Assembly (NCBI RefSeq): GCF_018698455.1
Contig: NZ_JABIOQ010000050.1
Location: forward strand, 1-61,877
Source: Sulfurimonas sp.
GTDB lineage: Bacteria > Campylobacterota > Campylobacteria > Campylobacterales > Sulfurimonadaceae
Length of the DNA stretch: 61,877 nt
Reading direction: 5' to 3'
Below the pieces are notes generated by a model that saw only the letters and a list, made by a program, of their open reading frames with translations, made no database searches and was not told the origin of the DNA. Position numbers and translations under genes: made by a program. This document shows, piece after piece, positions 50,519 through 56,287 of the stretch (positions are counted from its first letter, which is position 1; each line of letters starts with the position of its first letter).

Positions 50519-50737
50519 TCAATTGTATCTAAAAGTCGAGTATTCATATTTAGTACTTTTATCAAAAGCTAAACTCATATTTTCAAGAAATTGCTTTTTC
50601 CAGTTCTTGAGATTATTTGGAATAATCTCATATGCACTTGTAATTTCATTTATCGTCTTTTCACCCTCTAAAACTTCAAGCACTAATTTTGCCTTGAAGT
50701 CTGCACTGTATGTCTTTCGTGTTCTACTCATTTTCAA
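50519..50737 (-). mobile_element. IS3-family transposase OrfA fragment
   Basis: 72 codons: RKTYSADFKAKLVLEVLEGE, then KTINEITSAYEIIPNNLKNW and KKQFLENMSLAF is the OrfA HTH_Tnp_1 domain. The sequence then diverges (DKSTKYEYSTFRYN) and stops; the C-terminal part of OrfA and all of OrfB (DDE) are missing. Upstream, about 50820-50863, GC-rich inverted bases (GGGGTGGCCCCC and a CCCTATA/TATAGGG stem) may be the remnant of its left end. It marks the left border of the accessory block. Confidence 0.75.
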
Positions 50738-51022: not shown

Positions 51023-52255
51023 ATGAACATTAGTTTTTCACATTTAGATATATACAAAGAATCCCAAATTGTCCCCTATTTAGAGGGTGAGTCTGGGATA
51101 GGTAAGACATCGATTATAGAACAGTATGCTGCGGCAAAAGAAATGGATTGTATCATTATGGGAGTGGCTTCTTTAGATCATATAGAGTTTTACGGTAGGA
51201 CAGTTTCAACAGATATTGTAGCAGGCTTTAATGATCAAAAATTTACTGTATTTAAGAAGTCTATACCTAACTGGGTATCAACAATACTTCAAAATGATAA
51301 AAACAATAAAGAAACACTTCTTTTTATAGATGAGCTCAACCGTGCGGAGCCACAAAATCTTCAAAGTTTAATGAACCTAATACTTAAAAAAGAGTTTGGA
51401 TCTGATAGCATTAAATTACCAGAGTCTTTGTTTATTGTCTGTGCTGGCAATCCCACAGATGACGGTAATTACCTTGTTGAGTCACTTGATAAGGCTATGC
51501 TAAGTCGAATGGCCATAGTAAAGGTTAAAGCTACGCTTGAGTCATGGAAAAAGAGTTATGCTCTAATGCACGATAAGAAAAACAATAGACAAAGGGTTCA
51601 CCCCTTAATCATTAGCTACCTTGATAATAATCGTTCTGACTTTTTACTTCAAAGCAATGATGATGATATGAGTGATCCAGGAATGGATCCAAGAAGATGG
51701 GATATGATTTCTAGACTACTGTATTCTTATGAAATAAATACTACAAGTGATAATAACTTACTAAGCCTTTTATCTACCGTATCTAGTAAAGAAGTTACAC
51801 CTAAACTAGTTAACTATCTCAAGAGTTCTAAAGTTCTGGTTTTCAGCAAAATTCAAAAGCAACTTGCAGATTTTTTACACTTGCATAAAGAAAAAGACTT
51901 CCAGGCATATTTAGTAGATGAAAAGAATGATACTTCTCATTATGATGAACTTATAGAGTCAATACAATCCCAATTGGATCGTTCTCAACCTGTAACTCAG
52001 ATGAATATTCTTAGCTCTTGCTTCTACGCGGTAGAAGCTATGAGTGTAAGCGATGATATATTTGCAATTATGCTTAATGTAAGTTCTGAAGAACACATTA
52101 TGTCAATAAAAATTGGTATTGGTGAGGCTCAAACTTATATAGATAAGGTAGATGAAAAATACAGCTTAGGTGTCAATGAAAAAGTATCTAATGGTTTGGT
52201 GAAGCATATAAATAAAACAAATCCCTATGTAGCAGACCTCCTTCGAGGGCAATAA
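51023..52255 (+). CDS. MoxR-type AAA+ ATPase
   Basis: 410 aa. Walker A GESGIGKTS (about 22-30), Walker B LLFIDELNRAEPQNLQ (99-114) with the DELNRA form typical of MoxR/AAA_5 proteins, sensor 1 VCAGNPTDDGNY, and an arginine in DKAMLSRMAIV. The C-terminal half is helical. MoxR ATPases work with von Willebrand factor A proteins as chaperones that remodel or activate a target complex. It is the first of three genes that end in a VWA protein, with 1 bp to the next gene. Confidence 0.85.
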   Translation: MNISFSHLDIYKESQIVPYLEGESGIGKTSIIEQYAAAKEMDCIIMGVASLDHIEFYGRTVSTDIVAGFNDQKFTVFKKSIPNWVSTILQNDKNNKETLLFIDELNRAEPQNLQSLMNLILKKEFGSDSIKLPESLFIVCAGNPTDDGNYLVESLDKAMLSRMAIVKVKATLESWKKSYALMHDKKNNRQRVHPLIISYLDNNRSDFLLQSNDDDMSDPGMDPRRWDMISRLLYSYEINTTSDNNLLSLLSTVSSKEVTPKLVNYLKSSKVLVFSKIQKQLADFLHLHKEKDFQAYLVDEKNDTSHYDELIESIQSQLDRSQPVTQMNILSSCFYAVEAMSVSDDIFAIMLNVSSEEHIMSIKIGIGEAQTYIDKVDEKYSLGVNEKVSNGLVKHINKTNPYVADLLRGQ

Positions 52256-52256
52256 T

Positions 52257-53723
52257 ATGACACCATCTTACCTTCATGAAAATCTCATTCAAGCATGTGA
52301 AAATACCAATATAGACGAGGTCAAACGGTGGCTAGCTCTTGGTGCTGACGTAAACTTAAATATACACCTTCCTAAGAATGCCTTAGATACAGCCGTACAA
52401 ACAGGTAATCATCAAATTATTAATCTACTCTTAGAGTCTGATGCTACAATAAAAGAGTATGTGCTTCAAAAAGCCATAGAAAAAGACAAAAAATATCTAC
52501 ATCTTTTAATTCCAAACTTTGAAGTGTGCAAGGATAAAAAACTTCTTACAGGGATGCTTCTAGCCGCAATTAATATAGGTGATTTAGGCCTCGCAAAACA
52601 AGCAATTGAGCAAGGTGTAAAACCATCTTCATTGTTTTTATATGCTATTTTAAAAATTGCTAGTGTAGAAGTATTACAATTGTTAATTGAAAATGGTTTT
52701 AATATACATGCGGATACAAACAAAATTTTAACCCAATGGATGGGTTCATCTGCAATAAACTCGCATGAAGAGAAAAGGAATAAAAGACATGATCTATTAC
52801 AATTTATCATTGATTATTATCTAGAAAGACCCAACTCTATAGAAGGCTTTAAATCTTGGAATCAATCTGACAAATCACGTTTGTTTAGAATGGGATTAGA
52901 CACTAATAATTTGAACATGATGAAATTTTCGGTTTTGACAGGGGTAAACAAGAATGAATCGCTTAATTCTGTGCTCAGTCGATATTACTCAAAAACACAA
53001 GACAATAAAGATGTAAACGTTAACGAGGAGATAACCCAATATATTTTAAACTCAAATATAATATTTAATAAGGTGATTATTGCAAACGCAGTATGTTTTA
53101 ACTATACTAAAGTTTTAAATGCTCTAAGCCATATGGATGACTTAGAATATGCTTATGAAATAGCCTATAGCTATGACAATGACTCCTTGCAAAAGTATTT
53201 TATTAACAAAGGTGTTTCTATACAAGCACAACACTTTACTAAAATGAAAGTTGCTGCCACCAAAGGCAATCTTAAAGACTTACGACAAGCCGTTAATAAT
53301 GGTGCTAATCTAGATGTATTGGGTACTGATGTTATTGTTGAAATCATAAATGGAAATCACGTAGAAATACTAAAATATCTTCATGCCTCAGGTACAGAGT
53401 TTAACGGGTCGTATAATGCCCACCTAAATAAGGCAATGATTGCTCACAATGCGTATGAAAGCATAAGCTATCTCATAGAATTAGGTCTTGATATAACCAG
53501 TATAGGAAATATACCACGAGATTACAAAAGAGATTACCCCTCCTTTTTTGATATGTGGGAAAAAAAATTTAGAAATATCTTTAATTACACTATTTATTTA
53601 GCAAAAGAAGTTTACCCAAGGCGAGAAGGCAAAAAAAAAGAAGATGTCTTAGCAAAAATTGCAGAGTTTTCAACACTGCCTTATGTTATAAAAATGTCTG
53701 AGGCTGCATCACTTGAACAGTAA
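52257..53723 (+). CDS. Ankyrin-repeat protein
   Basis: 488 aa. Ankyrin-like repeats are clearest at the N-terminus (IDEVKRWLALGADVNLN, ALDTAVQTGNHQIINLLLES) and again in the second half (GNLKDLRQAVNNGANLDV, NGNHVEILKYLHASGTEFNG, SYLIELGLDITSIG). No enzymatic motif, signal peptide or membrane helix. It probably acts as the recognition or scaffold subunit between the ATPase and VWA proteins. It overlaps the VWA gene by 11 bp. Confidence 0.8.
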   Translation: MTPSYLHENLIQACENTNIDEVKRWLALGADVNLNIHLPKNALDTAVQTGNHQIINLLLESDATIKEYVLQKAIEKDKKYLHLLIPNFEVCKDKKLLTGMLLAAINIGDLGLAKQAIEQGVKPSSLFLYAILKIASVEVLQLLIENGFNIHADTNKILTQWMGSSAINSHEEKRNKRHDLLQFIIDYYLERPNSIEGFKSWNQSDKSRLFRMGLDTNNLNMMKFSVLTGVNKNESLNSVLSRYYSKTQDNKDVNVNEEITQYILNSNIIFNKVIIANAVCFNYTKVLNALSHMDDLEYAYEIAYSYDNDSLQKYFINKGVSIQAQHFTKMKVAATKGNLKDLRQAVNNGANLDVLGTDVIVEIINGNHVEILKYLHASGTEFNGSYNAHLNKAMIAHNAYESISYLIELGLDITSIGNIPRDYKRDYPSFFDMWEKKFRNIFNYTIYLAKEVYPRREGKKKEDVLAKIAEFSTLPYVIKMSEAASLEQ

Positions 53724-55290
53724 TCAAGACTACCTCTACTGTATGAAAACCATTGAGTCTATCATTGCAAATCCTGATAGTAGTTGGAAAACAGTATTTA
53801 AAGAGATGATTATTTCTATGATAGCTTCTAATACAAATGAGTTGCTTTGGTATGCAAATTTTTTAAGCAGGTGTGAATATGAATTTCACTTTGATGAATC
53901 ATTTGTTTCATCTGTTTATTTTAATGGGAAAAATTTTGTTATTGTAGTAAATCCAGTGATACTTGGAGTCATTCATAAAGACCAAATTATTGCCATACTT
54001 AAACATAGTGCGGGACATATAATTAACCATCATTTTACTCGAGGAAACTACGACAGCAGCATAAATAAAGAAGCGATTGAAACAGCAAAAGATATAGTAA
54101 TTAATGGATGTAGAGAGGTTCCTTATATTAAAGACTTACCTAGCACTGGTAGCTATAAAGATTCGCCTATTGCAGCACTTTTTTATCAGTCCCTTTTTCA
54201 AAAGTACCGAATTGAAACTTATGAGGTTGGTAGAGAGTTTGAATATTATGTAGAGCTAATACAAGAAGTTTTAAAAGAAGGTTCTTACACAGAAGCACAA
54301 GACAATAATGAATCATCTGACAATGACTTAGATAATAGCTCTGATGATGAGATAGATATACCATCAGATACTTCACAGGACAAAGATGAAAACAGTAAGC
54401 CCTCAAGCAATGATGAAGAAAATGGTATACAAGACACAGATGAAAAGAGTGGATCATCTGAAAGAAATGATGAGATAAGTACAGAGTCAAAATCTTTATC
54501 TGATAAAACCTTAGAAGCCTTAAAAAATGGTGAGTGTAAGATGGATAACCATGAGTATGGCGAACAGCTGCAAGTTGCTGTGGAACTTAATGATAATGCA
54601 TTAAACTCTTTCATGGATAGCACATTAAATGAGATGATACATGATTCAACAGACTTTGCAAGAGGTTTTACACCTGGTCTTGCAACTGGGGCACTAAGTA
54701 AAATCCAAAAAAGGAACTCACACAAAGATTGGAAAAAGATACTTAACAAAAAGATGCGAAACTCCTTCAATAATTCTATACGGTACAGAGAACCAAATAA
54801 GTCGAGACAACATCCCATTTTCCAAGATGATTTAGACTTGTATGGATACAGCCACACAAGGAAACCTAAACTAGCCGTTGTACTTGATGTGTCAGGTTCT
54901 GTTGATGACAAACTTCTTAGCTTTTTGATGTCTGAAGTCCAAGCCATCCAGAGAAGATATTCTATTAAGAGTGTTACCCTAGTGCAAGTTGATGCTGAGA
55001 TAAAAGATATACAAAAATTTGGAATTCGAGACAAGTTCATAAAGAGAGAAGGTAGTGGTGGAACCATAATGGAACCAGGCTTTATGGCCTTATTAGAACA
55101 ATCAAGTCGTGATATACCTGATATGATAATATGTGCTACAGATGGAGATATAGAAAAAAGTTTTGAACACGTTAAAATCCCAAATAAAGTACAGGTAATT
55201 TGGCTTATTGAGGAAAAAGGCAGATTATTGTTTGATGTAAGTAAATATCCAAAACAGCAGATGCATGTTATTAAGTTTTCGAATCTCTGA
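53713..55290 (+). CDS. DUF2201-like protein: degenerate metallopeptidase domain plus VWA domain
   Basis: 525 aa from TTG, with GAGG upstream; ATG at 53743 lacks a site. Residues ~1-190 resemble the DUF2201 putative metallopeptidase domain, but the zinc motif reads KHSAGHIINHH (98-107): Ser replaces the catalytic Glu of HExxH. A low-complexity acidic linker (about 195-260) follows. The C-terminal domain is von Willebrand A-like with MIDAS motif LDVSGSVDD (391-399), REGSGGTIMEPG and ICATDGD. It is probably the VWA partner of the MoxR ATPase. Confidence 0.8.
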   Translation: MNSNQDYLYCMKTIESIIANPDSSWKTVFKEMIISMIASNTNELLWYANFLSRCEYEFHFDESFVSSVYFNGKNFVIVVNPVILGVIHKDQIIAILKHSAGHIINHHFTRGNYDSSINKEAIETAKDIVINGCREVPYIKDLPSTGSYKDSPIAALFYQSLFQKYRIETYEVGREFEYYVELIQEVLKEGSYTEAQDNNESSDNDLDNSSDDEIDIPSDTSQDKDENSKPSSNDEENGIQDTDEKSGSSERNDEISTESKSLSDKTLEALKNGECKMDNHEYGEQLQVAVELNDNALNSFMDSTLNEMIHDSTDFARGFTPGLATGALSKIQKRNSHKDWKKILNKKMRNSFNNSIRYREPNKSRQHPIFQDDLDLYGYSHTRKPKLAVVLDVSGSVDDKLLSFLMSEVQAIQRRYSIKSVTLVQVDAEIKDIQKFGIRDKFIKREGSGGTIMEPGFMALLEQSSRDIPDMIICATDGDIEKSFEHVKIPNKVQVIWLIEEKGRLLFDVSKYPKQQMHVIKFSNL

Positions 55291-55315: not shown

Positions 55316-55687
55316 TCACATACTTTCAAGCTTTAAGTTAACATTTTGTACGCTATCTGTACGCTCATCATCTAAAAATACAGCTCTTTTCTTATTCTCA
55401 TCTGGAATAAATTTAGCATAAAACTTCAATGTTGTCGCTAATTCAGAATGTCCAAGCATTACCTTACTAACCCAAGCCAATTCCTCACCTTTTTGAAGCA
55501 TGATACTAGCGAATGTATGTCTAGTCTGATACAGTACTCGATGATCATACCCAGTTCGTATTAATAGGTTTTTCCAGTGATACTTTCGAAATGTATCATA
55601 TTTAGAATATTTACTACCATTTTGAGCTAAAAATATAAAACCTCTTTTAAGACCTGTACCTTTAAACTGTTCTTGTAAAGTAAAGCT
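55316..55687 (-). pseudogene. C-terminal fragment of a tyrosine integrase
   Basis: The minus strand reads GLKRGFIFLAQNGSKYSKYD, then VLYQTRHTFASIMLQKGEEL with box II Arg, LGHSELATTLKFYAKFIP with box III His and the nucleophile Tyr, and a variable tail. The N-terminal domain and the first catalytic Arg are missing. Above 55687 the reading continues in a different frame (HELDAYAINKGKDHKGHEFG at about 55695-55760), so at least one frameshift has occurred. It lies between the MoxR module and tRNA-fMet. Confidence 0.75.

Positions 55688-56210: not shown

Positions 56211-56287
<77 letters not shown>

What the first reader, a model, noticed from the sequence alone, without database searches (positions are those of the whole stretch)
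51023..55290. Three-gene MoxR ATPase / ankyrin / DUF2201-VWA cassette in a mobile-element scar
Seen: three genes with 1 bp gap and 11 bp overlap encode a MoxR-type AAA+ ATPase (DELNRA Walker B), an ankyrin-repeat protein and a protein joining a DUF2201-like metallopeptidase domain to a VWA domain with an intact MIDAS. IS3 OrfA relics and a truncated integrase flank them, next to tRNA-fMet. Known: MoxR and VWA proteins pair as chaperone systems. Inference: the ankyrin protein is a target-recognition subunit and the cassette is a horizontally moved stress, conflict or phage-defence module. I do not know of a characterised system with this exact trio.
Basis: partly seen in the sequence, partly recalled or inferred. 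Interest (0 to 1): 0.8.

Follow-up and report, generated by a model that had tools for sequence, protein, structure and literature searches.

The report
Travelling ankyrin-MoxR-VWA chaperone gene trio
A fixed set of three genes that probably builds an ATP-driven protein-remodelling machine with an added ankyrin recognition arm and a disabled protease domain has jumped as one block between marine Sulfurimonas-type bacteria; what it acts on, and whether it defends against phages, is not known.

Summary
In detail: three overlapping or abutting genes at 51023-55290 encode a MoxR-type AAA+ ATPase, an ankyrin protein and a DUF2201-type VWA protein. IS3 and integrase relics and a tRNA-Met flank them. 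The exact order recurs at 12 loci (Sulfurimonas-type and Sulfurovum genomes) with different neighbours in nearly all. It is rare and patchy (10 of 228 genomes of the family). Between species, synonymous divergence of the trio is 0.13-0.20 against 0.8-0.9 for purL in the same genome pairs. The whole trio has therefore spread horizontally, under purifying selection.

Two corrections. The "metallopeptidase" has lost its catalytic glutamate in every copy checked (HSxGH or HNxGH instead of HExxH) while keeping the zinc histidines and an intact MIDAS, so it is probably a non-proteolytic client-binding module. And no defence-island association was found: restriction-modification genes lie near 2 of 11 loci, the rest are mostly housekeeping.

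Best reading: a mobile MoxR/VWA remodelling machine with an ankyrin client-recognition subunit. It resembles the MoxR plus metallopeptidase-vWA pair of jumbo phages and, more loosely, MoxR-vWA ternary conflict systems, but fails defining tests of both. New variant of a known kind; role unproven.

The parts
51023..52255 (+). MoxR-type AAA+ ATPase, 410 aa, intact Walker A (GESGIGKT), Walker B (FIDELNRAE), sensor 1 (AGNP), arginine motifs (LSRM, DPRRWD)
52257..53723 (+). Ankyrin-repeat protein, 488 aa; predicted all-helical ankyrin-type solenoid over its whole length
53713..55290 (+). Zincin-like (catalytic Glu lost) N-terminal domain, acidic variable linker (about residues 186-262), C-terminal VWA domain with intact MIDAS, 525 aa
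50840..50908 (+). Leader upstream of the ATPase gene shared by 7 trio loci; its first ~36-50 bp match one end of a dispersed MITE-like repeat found elsewhere in the family
50519..50737 (-). IS3-type OrfA (HTH_Tnp_1) relic
55316..55606 (-). C-terminal fragment of a tyrosine recombinase/phage integrase; upstream part broken by frameshifts
56211..56287 (-). tRNA-Met (CAT), next to the integrase relic; no second attachment-site copy found in the window

Best explanation
The three genes encode one horizontally spreading, non-proteolytic protein-remodelling machine. A ring of the MoxR-type ATPase is capped by the VWA protein, whose MIDAS metal site clamps an acidic residue of a client. The zincin-like domain, with zinc ligands but no catalytic Glu, and the acidic flexible linker position the clamp. 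The ankyrin solenoid binds the client and gives specificity; ATP hydrolysis then pulls the client apart or into shape. Shown here: gene order, motif states, horizontal transfer as a unit, purifying selection, ankyrin fold by prediction. Inferred: complex formation, client recognition by ankyrin, non-proteolytic action. Unknown: the client, and whether the benefit is stress physiology or conflict with phages or mobile elements (the rivals below split this question; they are not all exclusive of this mechanism).
For: Trio in fixed order at all 12 loci (ATPase of the L007 genome split between contigs), with gene ends abutting or overlapping in most loci. All AAA+ and MIDAS motifs invariant. Zinc motif H[S/N]AGHxxxxH in 6 trio members against HExxHxxxxH in phage and plasmid relatives. 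dN/dS roughly 0.1-0.43 for the three genes. Trio dS 0.13-0.20 between the window and G375/G467/G485 against purL dS 0.79-0.91. Patchy: 10 of 228 genomes of the family. Ankyrin model pLDDT 83, Foldseek to ankyrin/DARPin chains prob 1.0; ankyrin gene duplicated independently in L008 and L059. Mechanistic precedents: NorQ/NorD, also N-domain, disordered linker, VWA, with MIDAS needed for the client but not for the ATPase (PMC9976466); CbbQ/CbbO, MIDAS binds Rubisco Asp82/Glu75 (PMC4660213).
Against: No direct evidence that the three proteins form a complex; the VWA model failed (pLDDT 39) and no complex was modelled. The three histidines could serve an atypical hydrolase. Horizontal spread could reflect hitch-hiking with mobile-element ends rather than a shared benefit.
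Confidence: 0.55

Rival explanations
1. A new anti-phage or anti-mobile-element system: ankyrin senses an invader protein, the MoxR/VWA machine dismantles it or sets a threshold, in the manner of the MoxR-vWA ternary conflict systems.
For: Three-component MoxR/vWA/third-protein layout as in Kaur et al. 2020 (PMC7159879); horizontal spread as a unit; rare, patchy presence; ankyrin is the fastest-evolving subunit (48-56% identity where the ATPase keeps 72-75%) and was duplicated independently twice; weak hit of the ankyrin protein to PADLOC candidate PDC-M72A (E 1.5e-7).
Against: No effector domain on the VWA protein; no VMAP or iSTAND-type third component found; restriction-modification genes near only 2 of 11 loci, others mostly housekeeping; no other PDC-M72 component matched; ankyrin dN/dS 0.19-0.43 gives no sign of positive selection; architecture does not vary as Kaur et al. 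expect of conflict systems.
Confidence: 0.27
2. A domesticated piece of phage or plasmid virion or transfer machinery: the MoxR/metallopeptidase-vWA pair of jumbo phages taken over by bacteria, still acting on phage or conjugation proteins.
For: Best profile matches are the phage families phrog_1297 (1.1e-43) and phrog_1314 (1.3e-36); the VWA tree puts the trio on the side of HExxH phage/plasmid proteins, away from the two-gene pairs of Campylobacterales; the pair is proposed for virion assembly in jumbo phages (PMC7824862).
Against: Long branch (2.4 changes per column) to the phage proteins; catalytic Glu lost; no phage structural or conjugation genes recognised in any trio flank; phage pairs lack the ankyrin gene.
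Confidence: 0.25
3. A passenger with a physiological role (respiratory enzyme or redox-protein maturation or stress repair), like RavA/ViaA or NorQ/NorD, carried around by mobile-element ends.
For: MoxR/VWA pairs with known function act on endogenous enzymes (PMC9976466, PMC4660213, PMC3893208); a thioredoxin gene follows the trio in three loci; neighbours are mostly housekeeping.
Against: No metabolic gene is conserved beside the trio across loci; present in only about 4% of the family's genomes, so no core client depends on it.
Confidence: 0.33
4. An active metalloprotease module with ankyrin-guided substrate choice.
For: Zinc histidines H98, H102, H107 are retained in every copy aligned.
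Against: The catalytic Glu is Ser or Asn in all trio members aligned, while HExxH is intact in the phage and plasmid relatives; DUF2201_N below Pfam's cut-off.
Confidence: 0.06

Closest known systems
MoxR AAA+ / metallopeptidase-vWA pair of group 2.2 jumbo phages (PMC7824862); profile relatives phrog_1297 + phrog_1314, e.g. Bacillus phage AR9 gp028-gp029
   Same: Adjacent MoxR ATPase and zincin-like + VWA protein; best profile matches; near full-length similarity of the VWA protein
   Different: Phages have HExxHxxxxH intact and no ankyrin gene between; trio has lost the catalytic Glu, gained the ankyrin subunit and lives in bacterial chromosomes
MoxR-vWA ternary conflict systems (VMAP, iSTAND, iSTAND2, TERNS3; PMC7159879, PMC8195603)
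   Same: MoxR ATPase, vWA protein and a third protein encoded together
   Different: Third component is an ankyrin solenoid; vWA protein has no fused effector and ends just after the VWA domain; no signalling domains; architecture constant
NorQ/NorD, CbbQ/CbbO, RavA/ViaA chaperone pairs
   Same: MoxR ring plus VWA/MIDAS protein; NorD also has N-terminal domain, disordered linker, VWA
   Different: Those are two-gene systems, the first two tied to a known client; no ankyrin protein, no zincin-like domain reported in the passages read
Arcobacter plasmid p82 and Burkholderia plasmid pMSMB608 MoxR - hypothetical - VWA triplets
   Same: Same three-gene order with a 308-330 aa protein in the middle
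   Different: Middle proteins are not recognisable ankyrins and barely resemble each other; zinc motif HExxH intact
PADLOC candidate PDC-M72
   Same: Ankyrin protein matches model PDC-M72A over 102 residues (E 1.5e-7)
   Different: ATPase and VWA proteins match no PDC-M72 model

Membership tests
MoxR-type AAA+ ATPase | AAA+ core with Walker A, Walker B (DE), sensor 1 Asn, Arg finger/sensor 2 | tested here: met
   AAA_5 32.1 bits over cut-off 22; motifs invariant in 8 homologues
DUF2201 / COG3864 metallopeptidase-VWA protein | C-terminal VWA with DxSxS...T...D MIDAS | tested here: met
   PF09967 50.9 bits, cut-off 26.4; MIDAS intact
DUF2201 / COG3864 metallopeptidase-VWA protein | HExxHxxxxH zinc peptidase motif | tested here: not met
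   H[S/N]AGHIINHH in 6 trio members; HExxH in phage/plasmid relatives; PF13203 20.9 bits < 23.2
Jumbo-phage MoxR/metallopeptidase-vWA pair | phrog_1297-type ATPase next to phrog_1314-type VWA protein | tested here: met
   E 1.1e-43 and 1.3e-36; neighbours except for the ankyrin gene between
Jumbo-phage MoxR/metallopeptidase-vWA pair | Located in a phage genome, active peptidase motif | tested here: not met
   Chromosomal housekeeping neighbours; Glu lost; no relatives found in viral contigs
MoxR-vWA ternary conflict system (Kaur et al.) | Third component VMAP, iSTAND or TERNS3 | tested here: not met
   Middle gene's significant Pfam matches are ankyrin families only; folds as an ankyrin solenoid
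MoxR-vWA ternary conflict system (Kaur et al.) | Variable effector domain fused C-terminal to vWA or vWA-L | tested here: not met
   Protein ends 24 residues after the last Pfam-matched VWA residue (501 of 525); all aligned homologues end at the same place
MoxR-vWA ternary conflict system (Kaur et al.) | Protects against invaders | not testable with these tools
   Needs phage or plasmid challenge
Defence-island gene | Neighbouring known defence genes across loci | tested here: not met
   105 flanking proteins scanned with PADLOC: restriction-modification genes recognised only at the window (HsdM/HsdR remnant) and L010 (C5 methylase); only the top 25 of 79 matching families were shown
PADLOC PDC-M72 | All components of the candidate system present | tested here: not met
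   Only the ankyrin protein matches
Horizontally transferred cassette | Divergence lower than host genome, patchy presence, varying location | tested here: met

The most novel reading that the evidence does not exclude
A previously undescribed class of MoxR-vWA system in which an ankyrin solenoid replaces the known third components and a dead zinc-peptidase domain serves as client clamp, spreading between marine Campylobacterota as an immunity or conflict cassette that dismantles a foreign protein complex without proteolysis.
Probability: 0.25. Interest if true: 0.78.

Novelty: new variant of a known kind. Interest (0 to 1): 0.5.

Why it matters
MoxR/VWA machines are common but few have a known client. 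A compact, mobile version with its own dedicated recognition subunit and a protease domain frozen in a non-catalytic state would give a tractable model for how these machines choose and remodel clients, and for how a phage-type assembly module could be turned into a bacterial accessory gene set.

Tried and rejected
tRNA-Met att-site repeat: no second copy within 3 mismatches. Viral contig scans with all three alignments: pattern hits only, no relatives. Ankyrin search in phage records: none. AlphaFold of the VWA protein: unusable. PDB sequence search with ATPase and VWA profiles: none. Middle genes of the Arcobacter and Burkholderia plasmid triplets as hidden ankyrins: no support. Weak ankyrin hits in G113, G229, G287: no MoxR or VWA neighbours, read as generic ankyrin proteins. 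Fixed housekeeping context: rejected, neighbours differ except L006/L010 and the shared thioredoxin in L003/L005/L064. Search of a further family around G069 (22 genomes) found nothing and has no positive control.
Full report
Observation. The first is an AAA+ ATPase of MoxR type with intact motifs. The second is recognised as ankyrin by Pfam mostly in its first 85 residues, but AlphaFold (mean pLDDT 83) makes the whole 488 residues an all-helical solenoid, and Foldseek's best PDB matches are ankyrin and DARPin chains. TM-scores are low, probably because long solenoids curve differently; I read this as fold class only. The third has a VWA domain of the DUF2201 family over the cut-off and a zincin-like N-terminal part under it. 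The IS3 relic, the integrase relic and the tRNA are real.

The protease is dead on paper. I aligned the VWA proteins with relatives. Phage, plasmid and a few Campylobacterales proteins carry HExxHxxxxH; six trio members carry H[S/N]AGHIINHH (HL in one), so the zinc histidines stay and the catalytic glutamate is gone; the two-gene pairs common in Campylobacterales have lost the motif altogether. The MIDAS residues are intact in the trio. Between the two domains lies an acidic, Ser-rich linker (25 of 77 residues Asp or Glu) whose length varies strongly among homologues. N-terminal domain, disordered linker, VWA is also the layout of NorD (PMC9976466).

Distribution and mobility. A scan of genome contigs gave nine loci in Sulfurimonas and Sulfurovum records, and whole-genome searches added G375 (L064) and G412 (L059); with the window that is 12 loci, all ATPase-ankyrin-VWA. 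The ATPase of L004 is broken by undetermined bases, that of L059 by one frameshift, and that of the L007 genome is split between two contigs. The ankyrin gene is present in 10 of 228 genomes of the family and, apart from the window genome, absent from the rest of 397 sampled genomes of the phylum. Neighbours differ: pyrF and hydrogenase, fructose-bisphosphate aldolase, feoAB, serS, polA and so on (names are my reading of the sequences, most not searched). The strongest evidence is divergence. Between the window and G375, G467 and G485 the trio has dS 0.13-0.20 while purL has 0.79-0.91; a metB-like gene of G375 has 1.98. G412 is the opposite: its purL is 91% identical to the window's but its trio only 48-72%. 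So the trio moves between species as a unit. dN/dS of 0.1-0.43 says it is kept functional.

What carries it. No integrase was recognised beside the other copies; the relic next to the window copy does not appear to be shared. Seven loci share a leader just upstream of the ATPase. Its first 36-50 bases match one end of a dispersed, MITE-like repeat with inverted ends that occurs several times in trio-free genomes of the family. No second end was found downstream in trio loci. It may be a promoter, a boundary scar or both; I do not claim a mechanism of transfer.

Relatives. Profile searches point to phage families, and the VWA tree places the trio as one clade (100/100) on the side of phage and plasmid proteins, away from the Campylobacterales pairs, though by a long branch. 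The MoxR plus metallopeptidase-vWA pair of jumbo phages has been described and proposed for virion assembly (PMC7824862). The phage pairs looked at have no ankyrin gene. Two plasmid triplets have a different protein in the middle position, so a third subunit may be a recurrent, exchangeable feature; that is an inference from two cases.

Function. The best-supported mechanism is client remodelling by a MoxR ring and a MIDAS clamp, as in NorQ/NorD and CbbQ/CbbO, with the ankyrin solenoid adding recognition. Ankyrin is the most divergent subunit and was duplicated independently in L008 and L059, both times without its first ~94 residues. This fits a recognition role but does not prove it. Against a defence reading: flanks scanned with PADLOC show restriction-modification genes at two of eleven loci, no effector, no positive selection, constant architecture. 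For it: mobility, patchiness and the three-part MoxR/vWA layout. I leave defence at about one in four.

Novelty. In the literature held here, the only paper with MoxR, VWA, ankyrin and phage together is PMC8195603, and its ankyrin passages concern animal proteins; no paper naming this trio was found. That is absence in a partial library, not proof of novelty.

Noticed in passing
L101-L110; L106:1837-2107; L110:2000-2165; window:50840-50908: Dispersed MITE-like repeat (~160-270 bp, ~35-bp inverted ends of the type GGGCACCTCTAAAAACCCTATACTCACTCAGCGAT) in Sulfurimonas-type genomes; one end of it sits at the 5' boundary of the trio in seven loci.
   Followed up: partly
L064:6012-6757: A ~290-bp copy of the 3' end of the VWA gene lies beyond a thioredoxin gene downstream of the trio, as a direct repeat, with a Mutator-family (IS256-like) transposase nearby; looks like a recombination scar.
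   Followed up: partly
L003:9715-10074, L005:9504-9863, L064:6346-6705: A thioredoxin gene, 93-96% identical in DNA, follows the trio in three loci but not in the window or the other loci; possible fourth cargo gene.
   Followed up: partly
window:44105-45065: Collapsed type I restriction-modification remnant: HsdM N-terminal piece, then an ORF joining an N6-methylase part directly to an HsdR C-terminal part (EcoR124_C).
   Followed up: partly
window:48231-58290: purL and the metB-like gene flank the trio region here but are over 100 kb apart in several relatives (e.g. G375, G126, G016), so the trio sits at a rearrangement point.
   Followed up: partly
L008:3960-5165, L059:9730-10893: Second ankyrin paralogues lacking the first ~94 residues, arisen independently, one upstream of the ATPase, one between ankyrin and VWA.
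   Followed up: yes
L055:2862-6106, L072:5968-9268: Arcobacter and Burkholderia plasmids carry MoxR - unknown ~310-330 aa protein - VWA triplets with intact HExxH; the middle proteins are not recognisable ankyrins.
   Followed up: partly
phages collection, e.g. NC_031039.1 gp029, NC_043027.1: Many phage records label the DUF2201 metallopeptidase-VWA protein 'HNH endonuclease' (phrog_1314), which appears to be a propagated misannotation.
   Followed up: no
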